This document shows positions 183-44,742 of a stretch of 64,000 nt of DNA, in pieces (position 1 is the first letter of the stretch; every line of letters starts with the position of its first letter). Below the pieces are notes generated by a model. That model searched no databases. It saw nothing but the letters and a program-made list of their open reading frames with translations, and was not told the DNA's origin. The stretch spans positions 1 to 64,000 of the forward strand of contig CALITC010000006.1 in NCBI GenBank assembly GCA_938041505.1, in the 5' to 3' direction. The position numbers were made by a program, and so were the translations under genes. Source of the stretch: an uncultured Patescibacteria group bacterium (GTDB lineage: Bacteria; Patescibacteriota; JACMRA01).

Positions 183-378
183 ACTATATTTTTACAAAAT
201 AAGGCTAAGTGTGTCAATTCCACACTATTCTAATCAATATCGACACCCTCTTTGCTGTGCTTACTATCGGCAAAGTACAGTTAACTTTATTAGAAGCACC
301 GCCAACAAATACCTTTAGCTTCTCTAGAGGTATATAATTTTGACACTTTTTGGCTTGTATTGCATAGTTAGCCTAATT

Positions 379-3300
379 ATGTCGGATACAGTAAGGAAAT
401 TCACGGAACAAGTTCTCAACAAGCATAACACAGGTGTTGCCAAAGAACACTCATATAGACCAGCAATCGAAGAGCTGTTAGAATCTGTGAATCCAGATAT
501 TGAGGCAGTCAACGAACCCAAACGGACCAAAGTCGGAGCTCCTGATTTTGTTATTCTTAAGAAAGATATCCAGATCGCGTACCTAGAAGCCAAAGATCCA
601 CATATCGACTTAGAGAACGAACTCCAAACCAAAGACCAAATCAAACGCTATCAATCGTTAGGTAATCTCTGCTTCACCAACTGCCTAGATTGGATTTTTT
701 TTCGTGGTGAAGAAAAACTATGTGAAGTTAATATTGGTTATTACACTCCAGACGGGATAGAATTTATACCTGAGAATTTTGCCCTGCTCGAATCTTACCT
801 CCAAGACTTTCTCAAACGCCAAGCGGTCTCCATCCGATCCTCCAAAGACCTAGCCAAACAAATGGCCTCCAAAGCCAGACTTGTAAAACACACCATCTAC
901 AACTCCATCACTAGCGAAGACCCTGACCCAGTCATTCACAATCAATTCACTGCGTTCAAAGAGATCTTGATTCACGATTTAGATGAGCAAGAGTTCGCTG
1001 ATATTTATGCCCAAACCCTGGCGTATGGTTTCTTTTCTGCTAGATTCTACGACCCTACACTTCCCACATTCTCAAGAGACGAGGCAAGAACGTTACTCCC
1101 GCGCTCCAATCCATTCCTGCGCAAATTCTTTGATTCAGTCGCTGGTATTGATGCGAATTCCGAAATCCTCTGGGTTATTGAAGACTTGGTTGAACTCTTT
1201 ATCAGAGTTGATGTAGCTCAGATCATGCACGGATTTGGTAAGGCCACCGAGCAAACTGACGCCATAATTCACTTCTACGAAACTTTCCTTGGAGAGTACG
1301 ACCAGAAGCTGCGCAAAGGCAAAGGAGTCTACTACACCCCTCAACCAGTGGTAGACTTCATCGTGCGAGGAGTAGATGAGATACTCAAAACCGAGTTTGG
1401 CCTCAGCGAAGGGCTCAAAGACACAACTAAGACCAGAGTACCCATCACCATCGCAGAAGCTCAAAGACAAGGCATTCCAGATAACGAATTAATCCAGGGC
1501 AAAGGTACCAAATATATCGAACGTCACAAGGTTCAGATCTTAGATCCTGCCACAGGCACAGGCACGTTCCCACTGGCAGTAATGAAACATATCTACAGCC
1601 AATTTGCCAACATGGAAGGTATGTGGCCAGGCTACGCCAAGAACGAACTCCTCCCAAGACTCCACGGCTTCGAGCTGATGATGAGCAGCTACTCCATGGC
1701 TCACCTCCAACTAGCGATGTTCCTCAAAGAAACAGGAGTCGAACTCACAGAAAAACAACGCCTGGAAATCTACCTAACCAACTCCTTAGAAGAAGCTCAC
1801 AGCGAAACCCACACCCTCTTCTCCGACTTCCTCTCCAAAGAATCTCAAGAAGCAAGTAAAATAAAAACCCAAACCCCAGTCATGGTCGTCCTCGGCAACC
1901 CCCCTTATGCCGTCAGCTCCAGCAACAAAGGCAAGTGGATCAATCACCTCATTGGTGATTACAAAAAAGATTTGAACGAGCGAAAAATTAATCTTGACGA
2001 CGACTATATCAAGTTCATTCGCTATGCCGAGCATTATATTGAGAAAAACGGAGAAGGTATCGTCGCCTACATTTCAAATAATTCGTTCCTGGATGGAGTA
2101 ACTCATCGGCAAATGCGAAAAAAGTTACTTACGACCTTTGATAAGATATACATTGTTGACTTACATGGTAACGCCAAGAAAAAAGAAACTACACCAGAGG
2201 GAGCAGTAGACCAAAATGTATTTGATATTCAGCAAGGAGTAGCAATTTATTTCTTCGTAAAAACCAAAAAAGAAAGCGGCGAGGAGGCTCAAGTATTTCA
2301 CCTTGATCTCTACGGTAAGCGTCAAACTAAATACGAGTTTTTAGAAAGCAATTCCATAGACTCCATAAGCTGGCACCAACTTGAACCAGATCCTAAATAT
2401 CACTTCTTTGTACCTAAAGATTTTGCACTGCAAGGTGAGTATGAAAAAGGGTTAATATTATCAAGTCTATTTAAATTATATAATAGTGGTATACAAACTA
2501 AAAACGACAAAGTATGTGTATCTTTTGACGATGCAAGCATTAGAGCAATTGTTAACGATTTCAATACAATGAGTTCAAATTCTTTGAAACAAAAATACGA
2601 TTTAATTGATACATCAGGTTGGACTGTAGATAGAGCAAAGAATAGTATAATAGACAGCAGCCATACTTTTTGCAAAATATTATATAGACCGTTTGATATT
2701 AGATATACGTGTTATACCACAAATTCAGGTGGATTTATTGGTCGGCCAAGACATTCAACTTCTAGACATTTCGTGGATAAAAAAAACTATGGTCTACTGA
2801 CTGTTAAACAGCAAAGCACTTTTGATTTTCAGCATATTTTTATCTCAGATCTAATTGTTGAGAGTGGTATGATTTCTTTACAAACCAAAGAGTGGGGCTA
2901 TCAAATCCCTTTATATACATATGAAAAAGAAGTAGTACCAAATTTAGATACTGAGCAGGTTGAGCTTATTGAATCTCAGTTAAAGATGAAATTATATTGG
3001 GAGGCTGGGATTGATGTTTCTTATTTGAAGGAGCGAGAGAGTCGGTTTTGTCCTGTGGATTTGCTTGATTATATCTACGCCTTTCTACACTCACCCAACT
3101 ACCGAGATAAATACAAAGAATTTCTTAAGATTGATTTCCCGCGCGTACCGTTTGATGTAGACCAATCAGAATTTTGGCGACTTGTTGAACTTGGGTCGCA
3201 GCTTCGCAAACTTCACCTAATGGAGGATATAGAAGACTCCCAGCTGACAGTAACCTACCCGCAAGCTGGCACCAACATTGTCGACAAGCCAACCAAGACC

Positions 3301-3510
3301 GGCGACAAAGTCTGGATCAACCAAACACAATACTTCGAAGGAGTCAGCAACCTAGCCTGGAACTTCTACATAGGCGGTTACCAACCAGCTCGTAAATGGC
3401 TCAAAGACCGCAAAGGTAGACAGCTAGACTACAACGACATCCAACACTACACAAAAATCTGCCACATATTAGAACAAACCCACCACCTAATGCAAAAAAT
3501 AGATCAGTAA
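379..3510 (+). CDS. Type ISP/IIG restriction-modification enzyme (fused nuclease-N6 adenine methyltransferase-specificity domain)
   Basis: PD-(D/E)xK-like GAPDFVILKKDIQIAYLEAKD; MTase motif I LDPATGTGTFPLAVM; motif IV NPPY; C-terminal WNFYIGGYQPARKWLKDRKGRQLDYNDIQHY typical of Type ISP enzymes; likely start at 379 (MSDTVRKF). Confidence 0.88.
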   Translation: MSDTVRKFTEQVLNKHNTGVAKEHSYRPAIEELLESVNPDIEAVNEPKRTKVGAPDFVILKKDIQIAYLEAKDPHIDLENELQTKDQIKRYQSLGNLCFTNCLDWIFFRGEEKLCEVNIGYYTPDGIEFIPENFALLESYLQDFLKRQAVSIRSSKDLAKQMASKARLVKHTIYNSITSEDPDPVIHNQFTAFKEILIHDLDEQEFADIYAQTLAYGFFSARFYDPTLPTFSRDEARTLLPRSNPFLRKFFDSVAGIDANSEILWVIEDLVELFIRVDVAQIMHGFGKATEQTDAIIHFYETFLGEYDQKLRKGKGVYYTPQPVVDFIVRGVDEILKTEFGLSEGLKDTTKTRVPITIAEAQRQGIPDNELIQGKGTKYIERHKVQILDPATGTGTFPLAVMKHIYSQFANMEGMWPGYAKNELLPRLHGFELMMSSYSMAHLQLAMFLKETGVELTEKQRLEIYLTNSLEEAHSETHTLFSDFLSKESQEASKIKTQTPVMVVLGNPPYAVSSSNKGKWINHLIGDYKKDLNERKINLDDDYIKFIRYAEHYIEKNGEGIVAYISNNSFLDGVTHRQMRKKLLTTFDKIYIVDLHGNAKKKETTPEGAVDQNVFDIQQGVAIYFFVKTKKESGEEAQVFHLDLYGKRQTKYEFLESNSIDSISWHQLEPDPKYHFFVPKDFALQGEYEKGLILSSLFKLYNSGIQTKNDKVCVSFDDASIRAIVNDFNTMSSNSLKQKYDLIDTSGWTVDRAKNSIIDSSHTFCKILYRPFDIRYTCYTTNSGGFIGRPRHSTSRHFVDKKNYGLLTVKQQSTFDFQHIFISDLIVESGMISLQTKEWGYQIPLYTYEKEVVPNLDTEQVELIESQLKMKLYWEAGIDVSYLKERESRFCPVDLLDYIYAFLHSPNYRDKYKEFLKIDFPRVPFDVDQSEFWRLVELGSQLRKLHLMEDIEDSQLTVTYPQAGTNIVDKPTKTGDKVWINQTQYFEGVSNLAWNFYIGGYQPARKWLKDRKGRQLDYNDIQHYTKICHILEQTHHLMQKIDQ

Positions 3511-5051: not shown

Positions 5052-5480
5052 ATGCTAATTGATAATAACAACGGTAGTCTTCGTTTCGAGTCTTTCAAAG
5101 GTGAAAAATTGAAGAATAATGAGCTTGGAAGAGTTCTTGTTGGAGGCGAATACAGACCCGACGTAATCGCTAAAAAAATCTTTGATGTAATTGCCAAAGT
5201 TAATGGCAATTACGAAGAAGATGATTACAGATCATCTGTTCTAGATGAGACGCTTATAAGCGTCTCAACGGAACCCATCATATCGTGGCGCGGTACAGAC
5301 GAGAATGCAACACCCCATGACTCTTATTACACAATAATAATAGTCTTAGAAATTAGTGAAGGTATGAAAAAGCCAAAAGCCGAAGATTTTGCAGGTGTGT
5401 ATTTAGACAATGACTACACCACTCACAGTTTTGGTATCAAAGATACCTTTGTTGGTTATGAGTTAACCAAAATTTGGTAA
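5052..5480 (+). CDS. hypothetical protein
   Basis: 142-aa ORF; upstream TTGGCA-N17-TATAAT and AAGGAG ribosome-binding site. Confidence 0.65.
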   Translation: MLIDNNNGSLRFESFKGEKLKNNELGRVLVGGEYRPDVIAKKIFDVIAKVNGNYEEDDYRSSVLDETLISVSTEPIISWRGTDENATPHDSYYTIIIVLEISEGMKKPKAEDFAGVYLDNDYTTHSFGIKDTFVGYELTKIW

Positions 5481-6134: not shown

Positions 6135-6647
6135 CTACCGCGGACTTATATCCAAACTAGAATAATAATTTCTGAATTCTTTCTCCAAGAAGGTTAGAGC
6201 ATCTTTATAATCTACACCCTCTTCTCTTTCAATCTTTTCGGTCTTCAAAGCCAGCTTATAAAAATACAAGTGATCTATGCGATTAGAAAGAATTCTATAT
6301 TCCTTGCCTTTGGAATACTGCGGGTCATTCTGTGTATAATTAATACTCAAAAATACGGTCGTTGCAATAACTGCAGTTCTTTTATTTCCATTATGTAATG
6401 GATGGTTTTTGATTATCGAATAAAAAATATAAGCAGCTTTAGAAAAAAGATCTGGATAGTTTTCTTGTCCATACATTTGTGCATTGCTTAATTCGAGTAT
6501 AGAAGCAATTTTATCCTTATTTACCTGATCCATATCAGGAATATCTTCCACAATATCCTCTTCATTGACATACACCTCTTTAGCATACTGTATCAAAAAC
6601 TCAACAATCTCCACAGTTAGATAAAAACTGACTTTACTTTTTGTCAT
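6135..6647 (-). CDS. doc: Fic/Doc family toxin
   Basis: Fic/Doc motif HPLHNGNKRTAVIATTVFL; start overlaps the upstream antitoxin-like gene by 14 nt. Confidence 0.8.
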   Translation of the reverse strand: MTKSKVSFYLTVEIVEFLIQYAKEVYVNEEDIVEDIPDMDQVNKDKIASILELSNAQMYGQENYPDLFSKAAYIFYSIIKNHPLHNGNKRTAVIATTVFLSINYTQNDPQYSKGKEYRILSNRIDHLYFYKLALKTEKIEREEGVDYKDALTFLEKEFRNYYSSLDISPR

Positions 6648-10319: not shown

Positions 10320-10348
10320 TTGACATATTTAAAAAGAGAGGCTTAATT
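10320..10348 (+). promoter_or_regulatory. sigma70-like promoter upstream of the PRTase-HAD operon
   Basis: TTGACA - 17 nt - TTAATT, about 30 nt before the TTG start codon. Confidence 0.55.
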
Positions 10349-10379: not shown

Positions 10380-12287
10380 TTGAACAAATTACCATCAGCA
10401 AACTTGAACAAAACTCAGTACATTATCGACTCAGGGACAACCGAAAATGATCTTTGGGGCGAGTTTAAAATGTCAAATCTGCACGACCCACTATTTAATA
10501 TAGTAGAGCATAATGAATTTTTACAAACCCAAGATGATTGCGGCGCACCATGTATTCCTTTGGTAAAATATGAAGAACTAAAGTCAAAACTACTCAATAG
10601 CTGCAAAGGTTACGAACAATTTTTACAGACATACTTAGAAGAGAGGGTTAGTCAGTATGAATCGCCTCGCAAAGTCGCAAGTCAAATCGCGCTTCGAGGT
10701 AGCGCCTACTATGAAAGCTTTGTCATTGGAAATGTGTCAAGTGACAAAAAAATAGATGTTCTTAAAAACTTAAAGGTCGATATTGATTTCTATAACATTT
10801 GCCAACAAAGTCGCAAAGATATACCCAAAGAATTTGTTCTAATGGTCATCGACCATATTAAGAACATTTTATTTAAAGTAATGTACGGTCTAGTAACAGA
10901 AGGTATAGAATTCAAAAACTTCAACATCAATGATTGGTATTACCTAGACAGCTTAGCTAAATCTTTATGGGAAGGGTATGCACGGGTATTATTTGAAGCA
11001 AATGGAAAAATTACAGGCTCATTAGATTTTACTAGATTGATTAGTTTATTTAGCGAATTAAAAATCACTGGAAAAATTAAAGAACTAGACAGTCCAAAAA
11101 ACCTGCTGAGGTTTGCCAGATCAGCTGAGCTAGCAAACATCGACTATACTTGCTGCGCCTCACTTCTGTACGGAGGAATAGAAATTCCATATGCACTACA
11201 TGGATATAATTCTGCGTTTAATCTAAAAATAAACGCTAAGACGCTACCGGTAGTATTTTCAACAAATCGAGTTCACAAAGGTATTATTGATAGTAAGATT
11301 ATTGATTGCAACGGTGTTATAAACAAAAACCAGTTACACAATATCATACCTTCAGAGTTAATAAATAAAATATCTAATGAAGACCAAATCTTAATTGTAG
11401 ATAACAACATCACCACAGGTTATTCTGTGAAAATTGTCCGGAATACTTTGGAACAAATTTTTTCCAAAGTGTATATCGGCGTACCTGAAATATATTTTGG
11501 AGAAATAAAGAAAATTTCTGAAAGAAATCCTGGTTTTGAGGACAAAGATATTTTCGTATCTGGGGAAGATTTAGCCATTAGACCTATTGATAAATACGTA
11601 ACGTGTTTTGGGGTAAAAGATAGCAGTAAGGTTGTAAATCGCATAATGTTTCTGCTAAAAAATAAAAACTATCAACAAATTGTTGGTTATGATTTTGACG
11701 ATACCATTGCAGAAACAGGTTATCTTCACGGAGAAGCCTGGGATTATTCTCTCAAAAAAGTTGGCTTTAATCACCTAAGTGTTAGTGACCTACCCAGCAA
11801 CTCTGGAATGACCAATTACAACGCCGGATTAAACATTTACAATTGGCTAATAGAAAATAAATGCGAACTTAGCATGCCTGCAGATAATTTTGCGAAACAA
11901 CTTGTGAAGTTAAAATTTGAGTATCTTATGGCTTATGACATGAATAAAATCCCTATTATTGCATCAACTGTTAATAAAATAATAGCAGATTCTGTTATCG
12001 ACACCCAAATAATTGTCACAAATAATAACTTAGAATTTATTGTATACTTCCTCAAGCAAAGGAACTTGTTACAATATTTTTCTTACATAATATGTGCAGA
12101 TTATGGACTCAGAGTCAATGGTGGAGAGAAAATCAAGCTTACTGGCAACGCTAAACCTAGTATAGACGCTTATACCGAAGCTCGTAAGTACTTTAAATTG
12201 CCTCCCATTAGAGAGTTTTACGGAGACAGCAAACTCACAGATAAAGTATTTGCCGAAAGGATAGGTGCAAAATTCCACTTGGTTTAA
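10380..12287 (+). CDS. fusion protein: phosphoribosyltransferase-like domain plus HAD hydrolase domain
   Basis: PRPP-loop-like ILIVDNNITTGYS; HAD motif I VGYDFDDTIAET; later motif FYGDSKLTDKVFAERIGAKFHLV; TTG start. Confidence 0.72.
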   Translation: MNKLPSANLNKTQYIIDSGTTENDLWGEFKMSNLHDPLFNIVEHNEFLQTQDDCGAPCIPLVKYEELKSKLLNSCKGYEQFLQTYLEERVSQYESPRKVASQIALRGSAYYESFVIGNVSSDKKIDVLKNLKVDIDFYNICQQSRKDIPKEFVLMVIDHIKNILFKVMYGLVTEGIEFKNFNINDWYYLDSLAKSLWEGYARVLFEANGKITGSLDFTRLISLFSELKITGKIKELDSPKNLLRFARSAELANIDYTCCASLLYGGIEIPYALHGYNSAFNLKINAKTLPVVFSTNRVHKGIIDSKIIDCNGVINKNQLHNIIPSELINKISNEDQILIVDNNITTGYSVKIVRNTLEQIFSKVYIGVPEIYFGEIKKISERNPGFEDKDIFVSGEDLAIRPIDKYVTCFGVKDSSKVVNRIMFLLKNKNYQQIVGYDFDDTIAETGYLHGEAWDYSLKKVGFNHLSVSDLPSNSGMTNYNAGLNIYNWLIENKCELSMPADNFAKQLVKLKFEYLMAYDMNKIPIIASTVNKIIADSVIDTQIIVTNNNLEFIVYFLKQRNLLQYFSYIICADYGLRVNGGEKIKLTGNAKPSIDAYTEARKYFKLPPIREFYGDSKLTDKVFAERIGAKFHLV

Positions 12288-12300
12288 AACTCTTATTTTT

Positions 12301-12322
12301 GCCTGTATACAAATATACAGGC
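12301..12322. repeat. perfect 9-bp intercistronic hairpin
   Basis: GCCTGTATA-CAAA-TATACAGGC between the PRTase-HAD and PfkB genes. Confidence 0.8.
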
Positions 12323-12364
12323 AATATTCTTGCAAAATAATAATTTTTGAAGTAGTAATCTCTT

Positions 12365-13246
12365 ATGAATCATAAAATACTTGTCGTCGGACCCACTTTT
12401 TTGGATATTCAAGTGTTTCTCAAAAATATTCATAAGGGCTCTATCAAAAATAGCTTTAGCATCGGAGGAAAAGGTTATAATATTGCCAGAAATCTTACTG
12501 CTTTCAACATCCAAGTTGACCTCGCCACAATGTACGGAAGTGATGATACTGGAGAATACATTGCTAAACAACTAGCAACTTCTGGAATAGGCTTACTACC
12601 TGAGAACAAATTAGAGGCCTCTGGTGGGGTTTTTGTTGGTGTGCATGACTCGTCTGGCAATAGTATCCTTGATAAAGCAGACACCTCGATGTTTCCACTT
12701 CAAAAACTATCCACCTCTTTGGAAAGCTATACCGAAATAATTGTACTTAGCTCCACCAATACGAAGATACTAAACTACATCAAAAGTCAAAAATCAAAGT
12801 TCAGCTTCACTCTATGCCTAGAATTTTCAGGAAAAAAAACTATCAACCATATCATGCCTTATTTAGACATGTTTGATTTTATCATAGCTAACAAAGAAGA
12901 AACTGAGGCACTTCTACAAATCTCCACAGAACAAACCAGCCTCACAGCTTCTATCAACGCTTTTAGTCAGCTAAACAAATGTATATTGATTACCACAATA
13001 GATAAAGATGGAATAATAGTAAGTAAGAATGGCGAATCATTTACACACCCTATTCATAAACTACAAGAATCTCTTGTCTCAACAGTTGGCGCCGGGGACT
13101 CAGTAACAGCGTCGATAGTTGCTCTTCACTATCACCTCAACTACACACTCGATAATGCAAGCCAAAAAGCTATGGAGATGGCAGCCTACATGGTGCGTCA
13201 ACCAGAACCTTATTTTACCTCCCTACCAACCCAAGTAACTTTTTAA
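12365..13246 (+). CDS. PfkB family sugar/nucleoside kinase
   Basis: N-terminal GGKGYNIARNLTAF; C-terminal signature STVGAGDSVTASIVA. Confidence 0.85.
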   Translation: MNHKILVVGPTFLDIQVFLKNIHKGSIKNSFSIGGKGYNIARNLTAFNIQVDLATMYGSDDTGEYIAKQLATSGIGLLPENKLEASGGVFVGVHDSSGNSILDKADTSMFPLQKLSTSLESYTEIIVLSSTNTKILNYIKSQKSKFSFTLCLEFSGKKTINHIMPYLDMFDFIIANKEETEALLQISTEQTSLTASINAFSQLNKCILITTIDKDGIIVSKNGESFTHPIHKLQESLVSTVGAGDSVTASIVALHYHLNYTLDNASQKAMEMAAYMVRQPEPYFTSLPTQVTF

Positions 13247-13253
13247 TACCAAC

Positions 13254-14210
13254 ATGACTTTCGCCAAACACACCACAACCTCCCTTCAGGCGGTACAAGA
13301 TACATTCAACCACACTCATAATTTTGCACCTCTTACATCAGATATTAACAGAATTTACTTTGTAGGTAGTGGATCCTCGTACTCACAATCTATATATGGA
13401 GCACAATTAACTAGGAAATTTTTAGGCATAGAGGCTATTTACACTAATCCTTACTCTTTTGTTAAATACGATAATATCACATCGCATGATTTAGTTATTC
13501 ACCTATCACAAGAAGCAAAACGTAACGACAACAGGTGCCCGTTACTGCACGCAAAAAGGAAAGGGGCACGCACAATACTTTTCACTTCCAAAACAACAGA
13601 TCTATATAACATTACCGATGAGGTGTATTGGTTTGCTCCTGAAATAGAAAAAATTCTTGTTGCCTCCATGAGTTATGCATCTGGTTATGCGGCCCTGCTA
13701 AAATGGATAACTTTCCAATGCACACATAAAGACAACCCTGTGCCTCATATAGATTACAAAGTAATATCCGATGTAATGAGCACAAGACTGAGTCAGAAGT
13801 TCCAAGTAACACCAGAATTCACTTGTTTTCTATATGCTGGTTTTGCTCAATCTGTCGCAGTTGAAGGAGCTCTTAAAATCAACGAATGTTTACTTATAGA
13901 TAGCGAATCATATGAACTCAAACATTACTCACATGGAAAACATTTTGTAAGCTACAATAAGCCTCGATCCTACGTTGTTCTAGAGCATATTACAGATTCT
14001 GAGCTAGTCGACCTCTACAAAGATACTATTTTCGAACCTCACCACAACATCACCAGAATAGCAAGTTCTTTATCCCCAGAGCTCGCAGTATTCGAATGGC
14101 TAAGTGGTATGCTCAAATACACAGTAGATGGAATGCAGTCCGTACATCTAACACTAGACAAAATCCCAGTGAGAGATTCTATACGCAGACCTCATCAATA
14201 CAAATACTAA
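13254..14210 (+). CDS. SIS domain protein (sugar isomerase/deglycase-like)
   Basis: IYFVGSGSSYSQSIYGAQLTRKF...VIHLSQEAKRNDN...FTSKTTD pattern; 7 nt after the PfkB stop. Confidence 0.75.
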   Translation: MTFAKHTTTSLQAVQDTFNHTHNFAPLTSDINRIYFVGSGSSYSQSIYGAQLTRKFLGIEAIYTNPYSFVKYDNITSHDLVIHLSQEAKRNDNRCPLLHAKRKGARTILFTSKTTDLYNITDEVYWFAPEIEKILVASMSYASGYAALLKWITFQCTHKDNPVPHIDYKVISDVMSTRLSQKFQVTPEFTCFLYAGFAQSVAVEGALKINECLLIDSESYELKHYSHGKHFVSYNKPRSYVVLEHITDSELVDLYKDTIFEPHHNITRIASSLSPELAVFEWLSGMLKYTVDGMQSVHLTLDKIPVRDSIRRPHQYKY

Positions 14211-14971: not shown

Positions 14972-16603
14972 TTAGATATCCAGGATGAGTTCAGACACCC
15001 ACTGCTTTATCTTATCTAGCCAAGTATCTTGCAGCGGATCTACTGTTGCAGCTGGTACCGTAATTGCTTCACTCTCTCCACACCTTACACGCCCATCTGC
15101 ACCAGTGATATACTCGCCGCACAATCTCAACCTATTACCCTCAATCTCTTGACCGTTCTGGCTGTAGCTAAATGGCTCAGCAACCTCTCGAAGTATACGC
15201 AGATTATCATCTACATCATTTTCGGGGAAACGGGCACTAAGGATAGCTAATGCGCCACTCACAGCCGGGGCAGACATAGAGGTACCCGTCATAAGAGCAT
15301 ACTGATTATCAGGAGCGCTCGAACCGATACGCGAACCAGGGGCGTAGATATCTACAGTTGCGTGACGATTCGAACCAGGGTGCAGCCTACCATCATCCAG
15401 AACGTTTCCCACACTCACCGCACTCGTGATACATGCTGGCATTGCCACCCCATAGAGACCACTATTTCCGGCAGCCACCACCGAAGCCACGCCAAGATCT
15501 TTGAGATTAGTAATAGCCGCTGTCATATCTCGGAAGAACCTATCGCACTCCCCAGCCGTGGCCTGAACCGAACCAACGCTCAAATTAATCGCAGCTAAGT
15601 TAGACGGAGCCTGGCCACGCTGCTGCATAACTTTAACAAGTGCCAAATAGCTCATTGCTTCCAGCTGATCCGACTGAAAACTCACAATACACGGAGCTGG
15701 TCTCTCACCGCACCCTTGAGCCCCAGGAGCGTCGACTCGGCTAAACACCTGAATAGCGAGCAAATCCGCACCACGCGCAACACCGTTGAACTGAGGGCTC
15801 TGCAAAACCGGCGAACGCGAAGCTATCTCCTCATTACTCCCTGCGGCAATTCCAGCCACATGAGTGCCATGGCCACACCCAGGAAGATCGCAAGGCTCTG
15901 CTGCCCCCACTCCTTGCTGCACTTCTGCCTCATCGGGGCACAAACTAGTAGCAAAACGGCTATTAGTCGAAAAACAGGCCTCCATCACCACCCGGCCTTG
16001 CAAAAACTCATGATCCCTATCAACACCGGTATCCAAAATCGCGATCATTTGATCAGCACCTGTTCCACTTGCACCACTATTCCAGCTCGTTGTGGCGCCG
16101 ATTATCGGGTTACTCGAATCAAGTGAGGGAGTCATCAAGCCATCTATCTCAATGCTAAACTCAGGTGGGGTTTTTTGAAAAATAGCGCTCAGCTCAGACT
16201 CGCTCTCAACCTCAACAGTCAGCAGCGGTGAAAGCTGGCTCATCTCAACTTGTTCTCTACTCAAGCCAAGTAGCTCCATAAGCTGCCTCTGCTCAGTCTC
16301 ATACAGGTACGGTAGCTCAAACCCCTCACCCATCATTGCATCTTCTCCAGAACTGCTTTGGGCAAATTCTTGTAGCTTACTTACCTGCCCCTCTCCACTG
16401 GGATCAAGGTTAATCAGCATTCTTAAACTTCCATTATCTTGAAGATTATGCAGTATCTGCTCGTAAGTAATCACACTCTGGGGAGGCGGTGCTGTCTCTT
16501 GACCAAAAACCGGCATCGAGGCGAGCACAGAAACAAAAAGACCAATTAGTGAAAACAGGGCGACAAAGCGCGTAAAATAAATATGTAATATAGTTGCAAA
16601 CAA
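14972..16603 (-). CDS. subtilisin-like serine protease (S8), secreted
   Basis: Catalytic motifs AILDTGVD, GHGTHVAGIAAG, GTSMSAPAVSG; N-terminal signal-like segment. Confidence 0.95.
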   Translation of the reverse strand: MFATILHIYFTRFVALFSLIGLFVSVLASMPVFGQETAPPPQSVITYEQILHNLQDNGSLRMLINLDPSGEGQVSKLQEFAQSSSGEDAMMGEGFELPYLYETEQRQLMELLGLSREQVEMSQLSPLLTVEVESESELSAIFQKTPPEFSIEIDGLMTPSLDSSNPIIGATTSWNSGASGTGADQMIAILDTGVDRDHEFLQGRVVMEACFSTNSRFATSLCPDEAEVQQGVGAAEPCDLPGCGHGTHVAGIAAGSNEEIASRSPVLQSPQFNGVARGADLLAIQVFSRVDAPGAQGCGERPAPCIVSFQSDQLEAMSYLALVKVMQQRGQAPSNLAAINLSVGSVQATAGECDRFFRDMTAAITNLKDLGVASVVAAGNSGLYGVAMPACITSAVSVGNVLDDGRLHPGSNRHATVDIYAPGSRIGSSAPDNQYALMTGTSMSAPAVSGALAILSARFPENDVDDNLRILREVAEPFSYSQNGQEIEGNRLRLCGEYITGADGRVRCGESEAITVPAATVDPLQDTWLDKIKQWVSELILDI

Positions 16604-44128: not shown

Positions 44129-44148
44129 GGGCTTAATGTTAAGCCAAC

Positions 44149-44255
44149 GTGGATGAAAGGAGTTGAACCTTTGACACCTGGGGGCAATACTAAAGAGGTA
44201 AGTATTAAGGTTTTCCTCCTTGTAAGTCCCAGTGCTCTACCAACTGAGCTACATC
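44149..44255 (-). tRNA. tRNA-like gene with a 45-nt anticodon loop; possibly Val(TAC)
   Basis: GTGGATG/CATCCAC acceptor; D-arm GCTC-AGTTGGTA-GAGC; CTGGG/CCCAG anticodon stem; T-arm AAAGG-TTCAACT-CCTTT. Confidence 0.6.
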
Positions 44256-44404
44256 CACAGGGCGAGAGTCAACGTGTACATAAATAAATTTAATTTGATC
44301 GGAATGTAACAAAATCAAGTTATTTTCATAATGTTGACTCTCATATTATAAAAAAATTTTATAACGTTTCTCAAGCTAAAATAATTTTTGAAAACTGTCA
44401 AGAT

Positions 44405-44515: not shown

Positions 44516-44668
44516 CAAAAAAAACCCCATCTAAATATTTTGACGGAGTAGGAGAAAAATTAGTGCGAGAAATAGTGGATAAAGTTTGCATTTTAAGGTA
44601 ATTGAATGCAAACCAATTAACATTCCAATAGATTTATCGCACAGGCTCACAGTGATGATAGAGCCAAA

Positions 44669-44742
44669 GCACCTGGATGGACTTGAACCATCGTCACGTT
44701 GATTAAATAAGTCAACGACTCTACCAACTGAGTTACAGGTGC
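44669..44742 (-). tRNA. tRNA-Lys-like gene with 9-nt anticodon loop
   Basis: GCACCTG/CAGGTGC acceptor; GTTGA-CTTATTTAA-TCAAC anticodon arm; T-arm GATGG-TTCAAGT-CCATC. Confidence 0.65.

What the first reader, a model, noticed from the sequence alone, without database searches (positions are those of the whole stretch)
10380..14210. PRTase-HAD fusion + PfkB kinase + SIS isomerase operon: candidate undescribed nucleotide/sugar-phosphate pathway
Three co-directional genes follow one promoter: a 635-aa protein joining a PRPP-loop-like domain (ILIVDNNITTGYS, first acidic residue kept, second is Asn) to a HAD domain (YDFDDTIAET), a PfkB kinase (GAGDS) and a SIS protein 7 nt later. Transfer, dephosphorylation, phosphorylation and sugar isomerization activities together suggest synthesis or salvage of a ribosyl-linked metabolite. 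PRTase plus HAD combinations have been proposed for nucleoside-like metabolite pathways (e.g. Ter-associated operons), but I do not recognise this gene set. The pathway is inference.
Basis: partly seen in the sequence, partly recalled or inferred. Interest (0 to 1): 0.75.

Follow-up and report, generated by a model that had tools for sequence, protein, structure and literature searches.

The report
Rare sugar-phosphate enzyme gene cassette
Three neighbouring genes in an uncultured, small-genome bacterium encode a set of sugar-phosphate enzymes that is kept together in only one other known genome; it probably makes or recycles an unknown ribose-linked compound, but nothing yet shows which one.

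Summary
The three genes are real and correctly described. Gene 1 (635 aa) has a complete HAD phosphatase domain (Pfam HAD_2 above cut-off, all four motifs). Its middle carries a PRPP-loop-like motif, VDNNITTGYS, which resembles phosphoribosyltransferases (PRTs) locally but is in no Pfam PRT family; AlphaFold could not model it, so the PRT fold is likely but unproven. Genes 2 and 3 are a ribokinase-like PfkB kinase and a GlmS/FraB-type SIS protein with an unusual phosphate loop (SQSGET becomes SQEAKR). The same three genes in the same order occur once more, in Ca. Gracilibacteria RU_4_5 (same family, other genus), at 45-61% identity with near-saturated synonymous change, so all three were under purifying selection. 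There the cassette lies between 144-bp direct repeats of the relA/spoT 3' end, suggesting it moved as a unit, and two of its genes are now broken. None of about 390 genomes searched in the phylum, and no phage, plasmid or viral contig, has another copy. The kinase-SIS pair is tightly coupled; a hairpin separates gene 1 from it in both genomes. Best reading: a kinase plus isomerase/deglycase pair, as in fraD/fraB, combined with a PRT-HAD protein, acting on a ribosyl or sugar conjugate. The substrate is unknown. Ter membership is not supported.

The parts
10380..12287 (+). Gene 1: 635-aa protein; N-terminal region of unknown kind (about 1-225), PRT-like region (about 225-432), HAD phosphatase domain (437-634)
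   Evidence: homologue in L004 at 45-53% identity
11163..11189 (+). Candidate PPi loop LLYGGIEIP (residues 262-270), in the order and spacing of a type I PRT; assigned by eye
   Evidence: sequence, conserved in L004 as LLFGGVEIP; inference
11388..11426 (+). PRPP-loop-like motif ILIVDNNITTGYS (residues 337-349)
   Evidence: hhalign score 31.8 against 7 PRTs, best of 20 shuffles 16.2; NCBIfam HPT/APT E 0.0015-0.01; ShosT E 5e-4
11688..12281 (+). HAD phosphatase domain with D438, D440, T547, K592, D616/D621; insert of about 100 aa between motifs I and II fits a C1 cap
   Evidence: Pfam HAD_2 E 3.6e-7, over cut-off; residues invariant in L004
12299..12324 (+). 11-bp stem hairpin TTGCCTGTATA-CAAA-TATACAGGCAA between genes 1 and 2; terminator or attenuator candidate
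   Evidence: z -4.8; a different hairpin with a T run lies at the same place in L004
12365..13246 (+). Gene 2: PfkB/ribokinase-like kinase; D14, GGKG (34-37), N39, NKEE (176-179) and GAGD with D245 kept
   Evidence: Pfam PfkB 1.3e-22, NCBIfam ribokinase 2.9e-15 (below cut-off)
13254..14210 (+). Gene 3: GlmS/FraB-type SIS protein without glutaminase domain; E204, K208, E211, H227, R311 kept; phosphate loop SQSGET replaced by SQEAKR

Best explanation
It is a conserved, probably mobile three-gene metabolic cassette of one Patescibacteria-type family. SHOWN: three intact genes; the same order and purifying selection in two genera; a complete HAD phosphatase domain; a PfkB kinase with catalytic residues; a GlmS-type SIS protein with the isomerase Glu and His kept. 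INFERRED: the closely coupled PfkB and SIS proteins act in sequence, as kinase and isomerase or deglycase, on a ketose or amino-sugar conjugate, as in FraD/FraB and FrlD/FrlB. The PRT-like region of gene 1 uses PRPP to put a phosphoribosyl group on (or take it off) an acceptor, and the fused HAD domain removes the phosphate. Together they would make or salvage a ribose-linked metabolite. The acceptor, the direction and the order of steps are not known.
For: Family profiles. Same gene order in L004/JAAUSE010000035.1 with other flanking genes. pS 0.71-0.85 against pN 0.26-0.38, about like the RNase J control. PfkB and SIS separated by 7 nt in the window and overlapping (ATGA) in L004. SIS closest to GlmS, NagB-II and FraB, with E488 and H504 equivalents kept. 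FraD kinase plus FraB deglycase is an established pair (PMC4941530). PRPP-loop similarity well above shuffles.
Against: PRT fold unproven: no Pfam PRT hit, AlphaFold pLDDT 42.5; the second acidic residue of the PRPP loop is Asn and the candidate PPi loop lacks the usual Arg/Lys. The phosphate loop of the SIS protein is rewritten, so a standard sugar-6-phosphate may not be the substrate. The hairpin between genes 1 and 2 allows separate transcription. Only two genomes carry the set, and in one of them two of the three genes are broken.
Confidence: 0.4

Rival explanations
1. The PRT-like region is a non-catalytic PRPP or nucleotide sensor (as in PurR-type regulators) that controls the HAD phosphatase; only the HAD, the kinase and the SIS protein are enzymes.
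For: VDNN instead of VDD/VED, no basic residue in the candidate PPi loop.
Against: The motif and the candidate PPi loop are strictly conserved at 53% overall identity, but sensor PRTs can keep the PRPP loop too, so conservation does not decide.
Confidence: 0.2
2. An activated-sugar module like ADP-heptose synthesis (SIS isomerase, PfkB kinase, HAD phosphatase), with the usual nucleotidyltransferase replaced by a PRT-like enzyme.
For: The same three enzyme classes as GmhA, HldA/HldE and GmhB (established pathway knowledge); HldE is among the weak kinase hits.
Against: The SIS protein is GlmS-like, with no blastp hit to GmhA and none to SIS_2; the kinase is closer to ribokinase than to HldE; no nucleotidyltransferase in the set.
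Confidence: 0.1
3. A conflict or defence system in which the PRT-HAD protein is an effector or signal maker, like ShosT or the Ter nucleoside pathway.
For: PADLOC ShosT hit E 5e-4 at the PRPP loop; a type IIG restriction enzyme and a Fic protein lie 3.7-10 kb upstream; sporadic presence and apparent mobility.
Against: The hit covers about 50 residues around the motif only; no antitoxin-like or DprA-like gene found next to it; kinase and SIS genes do not belong to ShosTA; no TerD in either genome.
Confidence: 0.1
4. Genes 2-3 are a separate sugar-conjugate catabolic pair, and gene 1 is only a travelling companion.
For: Terminator-like hairpin between genes 1 and 2 in both genomes; genes 2 and 3 are the coupled ones.
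Against: All three genes lie together at unrelated chromosomal sites in two genera, with the repeats enclosing all three.
Confidence: 0.15

Closest known systems
FraD/FraB (fructose-asparagine) and FrlD/FrlB (fructoselysine) kinase-deglycase pairs
   Same: Kinase and GlmS-fold SIS protein encoded together; Glu and His of the active site kept (E211, H227); FraB is the top structural match of the weak SIS model
   Different: Phosphate loop SQEAKR; only 21-27% identity to FrlD and FrlB over partial alignments; no transporter, epimerase or asparaginase next to it; an extra PRT-HAD gene
GlmS sugar-isomerase domain
   Same: Best sequence match of gene 3; E481, K485, E488, H504 and R599 equivalents kept
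   Different: No glutaminase domain; S349 and T352 replaced by Glu and Arg; K603 absent
Ter-associated PRT plus HAD pathway (PMC7824862, section 22)
   Same: PRT-like and HAD domains in one gene set
   Different: No Ter PRT family hit, no TerD in the genomes, fusion instead of separate genes, kinase and SIS instead
ADP-heptose module GmhA/HldE/GmhB
   Same: SIS, PfkB and HAD classes together
   Different: Different SIS and kinase subfamilies; no nucleotidyltransferase; PRT-like domain

Membership tests
Type I phosphoribosyltransferase | PRPP loop (four hydrophobic residues, two acidic residues, then TTG-x-T/S) | tested here: inconclusive
   VDNNITTGYS: first acidic residue and TTGxS kept, second acidic is Asn; hhalign 31.8 against shuffles of at most 16.2
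Type I phosphoribosyltransferase | Whole-domain similarity or PRT fold | tested here: inconclusive
   No Pfam hit, not found by PF00156; model pLDDT 42.5
HAD phosphatase | DxDxT, S/T, K and DD motifs in order | tested here: met
   D438/D440, T547, K592, D616/D621, invariant in both copies; HAD_2 over cut-off
PfkB kinase | Pfam score, GG-x-x-N site and GAGD catalytic Asp | tested here: met
   81 bits against 25.8; GGKGYN, GAGDS
Ribokinase (equivalog) | NCBIfam equivalog cut-off; ribose-contact Glu (E143) | tested here: not met
   56.4 bits against 299.65; the E143 position aligns to Ser/Thr residues
SIS sugar isomerase, GlmS/FraB type | SIS profile; catalytic Glu and His | tested here: met
   SIS 28.8 against 25.0 bits; E211, H227
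SIS sugar isomerase, GlmS/FraB type | Ser/Thr phosphate loop SxSGxT | tested here: not met
   SQEAKRND in the window, TQEAKRND in L004
FraB/FrlB deglycase | Cleaves ketosamine 6-phosphate | not testable with these tools
   needs an enzyme assay
Ter nucleoside pathway | Ter PRT families and TerD in the genome | tested here: not met
   No Ter PRT Pfam hit; no TerD in G000 or G001 (genomes 69% and 80% complete)
ShosTA | ShosT homology over the protein plus ShosA (DprA-like) partner | tested here: not met
   50-residue motif hit only; no such neighbour among the proteins scanned
ADP-heptose module | GmhA-type SIS and nucleotidyltransferase | tested here: not met

The most novel reading that the evidence does not exclude
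A mobile cassette in small-genome bacteria that makes a new ribose-linked small molecule: a bifunctional PRT-HAD enzyme builds a nucleoside-like conjugate from PRPP, a coupled kinase and an SIS isomerase with a new phosphate-binding loop convert its sugar, and the product serves as a nutrient, signal or weapon in the community.
Probability: 0.15. Interest if true: 0.7.

Novelty: new variant of a known kind. Interest (0 to 1): 0.42.

Why it matters
Bacteria of this kind have tiny genomes with little biosynthesis, so a sporadic, selected sugar-phosphate cassette points to a metabolite worth keeping. The PRT-HAD fusion is not covered by the family libraries searched here, and the SIS phosphate loop SQEAKRND is an active-site variant that is easy to test. 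The cassette also gives a case of likely gene-set movement in this group, between direct repeats of a relA/spoT end and without its own recombinase.

Tried and rejected
AlphaFold of gene 1 and of the SIS protein from only two homologues gave pLDDT 42.5 and 51. Fold search with the gene 1 model gave nothing usable; with the SIS model it gave GFAT, FraB and NagB-II, read with caution. Scans of GTDB contigs found only the one relative; those scans need short exact peptide patterns, so distant relatives outside the phylum could be missed. Phages, plasmids and viral contigs gave none for gene 1, and only one weak phage hit each for the SIS protein and the kinase. A profile search of 389 genomes of the phylum found one extra hit at E 0.005 over 81 residues, not followed. 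Searching another phylum was not possible. An empty-site test failed because synteny around relA and around the window's flanks is not kept in the family. Reading the stops in L004 as a changed code (TGA=Gly is known in some Gracilibacteria) was rejected: the TGA falls at an Arg position, there is also a TAG, and neighbouring genes are open under table 11. Full-text searches found no paper on this gene set.

Full report
OBSERVATION. Gene 1 starts at a TTG (10380) with AGGAG upstream. Gene 2 starts 77 nt after gene 1 ends; gene 3 starts 7 nt after gene 2. Pfam finds HAD_2, PfkB and SIS above their cut-offs. The middle of gene 1 is hit only locally, at the PRPP loop, by archaeal HPT and by APT models (E 0.006-0.01 for the whole protein, 0.0015-0.0024 for the middle part) and by PADLOC ShosT (E 5e-4). 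Aligned with seven known or predicted PRTs, the region scores 31.8, against at most 16.2 for 20 column shuffles, over 32 columns around the motif. So the motif is not chance, but the fold is not proven. By eye, LLYGGIEIP about 75 residues before the motif sits where a PPi loop belongs.

HOST AND RELATIVES. The window lies in a 1.12 Mb, 69% complete genome. A tblastn search of 389 genomes of its phylum found gene 1 in one other genome, of the same family but another genus; a profile search of the same set added only one weak 81-residue hit. The GTDB record is JAAUSE010000035.1, Candidatus Gracilibacteria bacterium RU_4_5. It carries the same three genes in the same order: gene 1 at 45-53%, PfkB at 51%, SIS at 54-61% identity. 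The flanks differ: relA/spoT before and pgi after, instead of a GNAT gene and an unknown 140-aa gene. Four other genomes of the family lack gene 1, though they are only 78-85% complete. Phage, plasmid and viral collections gave no relative of gene 1.

SELECTION AND DECAY. Synonymous differences are near saturation (pS 0.71-0.85) while pN is 0.26-0.38 in all three genes; RNase J from the same contigs gives 0.74 and 0.25. All three genes were therefore under protein-level selection for most of their history. In RU_4_5, gene 1 now has a TAG, a frameshift and a TGA, and the SIS gene has a frameshift, while PfkB and the neighbours relA, pgi, rnpA and RNase J are open. The contig has about 4-fold coverage by its title, so some lesions could be assembly errors, but the neighbours show none.

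MOVEMENT. In RU_4_5 the cassette lies between two 144-bp direct repeats, 96% identical, that are copies of the 3' end of the relA/spoT gene. This is what an insertion that duplicates or carries a gene end would leave. No recombinase gene lies between the repeats. In the window no such repeat was found, and synteny in the family is too poor for an empty-site test.

EXPRESSION. PfkB and SIS are 7 nt apart in the window and overlap by ATGA in RU_4_5, so they are probably coupled. Between genes 1 and 2 both genomes have a stable hairpin of unrelated sequence: z -4.8 for the spacer in the window, -3.3 in RU_4_5, there followed by a T run. A terminator or attenuator after gene 1 is likely, so 'one promoter for three genes' is not shown. 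A TTGACA near 10320 lacks a good -10, and promoter-like sites are at chance level.

ENZYME DETAIL. HAD: D438, D440, T547, K592, D616 and D621 are all present and invariant. PfkB: ribokinase-like, with D14, GGKG, N39 and D245 kept but the ribose-contact E143 position changed. SIS: GlmS numbering E481, K485, E488, H504 and R599 correspond to E204, K208, E211, H227 and R311; the phosphate loop S347-Q-S-G-E-T352 reads S-Q-E-A-K-R, and K603 is absent. The roles of these residues are taken from established knowledge of GlmS and ribokinase. The low-confidence SIS model still finds FraB deglycase and GFAT first, with NagB-II further down the list, in line with the sequence profiles.

MECHANISM. The kinase-SIS pair is most like FraD/FraB and FrlD/FrlB, where a kinase phosphorylates a ketosamine and the SIS enzyme splits it (PMC4941530). 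The PRT-HAD protein adds a likely PRPP-dependent step and a phosphatase step. I therefore favour a pathway that makes or salvages a ribose- or sugar-linked metabolite. Which step follows which, and on what substrate, is inference.

COMPARISON AND VERDICT. It does not meet the tests for the Ter pathway (no Ter PRT hit; no TerD), ShosTA, or the ADP-heptose module. It works most like a kinase-deglycase pair but is not shown to be one. I rate it as a new variant of a known kind: known superfamilies in a combination and with a fusion that no library used here names. Interest is moderate, because the set is real and selected, but rare and of unknown substrate.

Noticed in passing
L004 (JAAUSE010000035.1) 823-966 and 5266-5409: 144-bp direct repeats (96%) of the relA/spoT 3' end enclose the three-gene cassette, with no recombinase gene inside: a possible mobile cassette in this group.
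   Followed up: partly
window 44148-44258 (-): Rfam calls a tRNA of 111 nt whose anticodon loop holds a 45-nt stretch, missed by ARAGORN; it looks like a tRNA with a short intron or insertion. The tRNA at 44668-44742 (-) gets the odd anticodon ATT from ARAGORN.
   Followed up: partly
window 340-3510 (+) and 6135-6647 (-): Type IIG restriction-modification enzyme (PADLOC E 3.5e-295) and a Fic/Doc protein upstream of the cassette; the first 10 kb may be a defence or mobile region.
   Followed up: partly
window 14972-16603 (-): Subtilase (S8) gene with higher G+C (0.50) than its surroundings; a 39-41% relative in only one other genome of the family.
   Followed up: no
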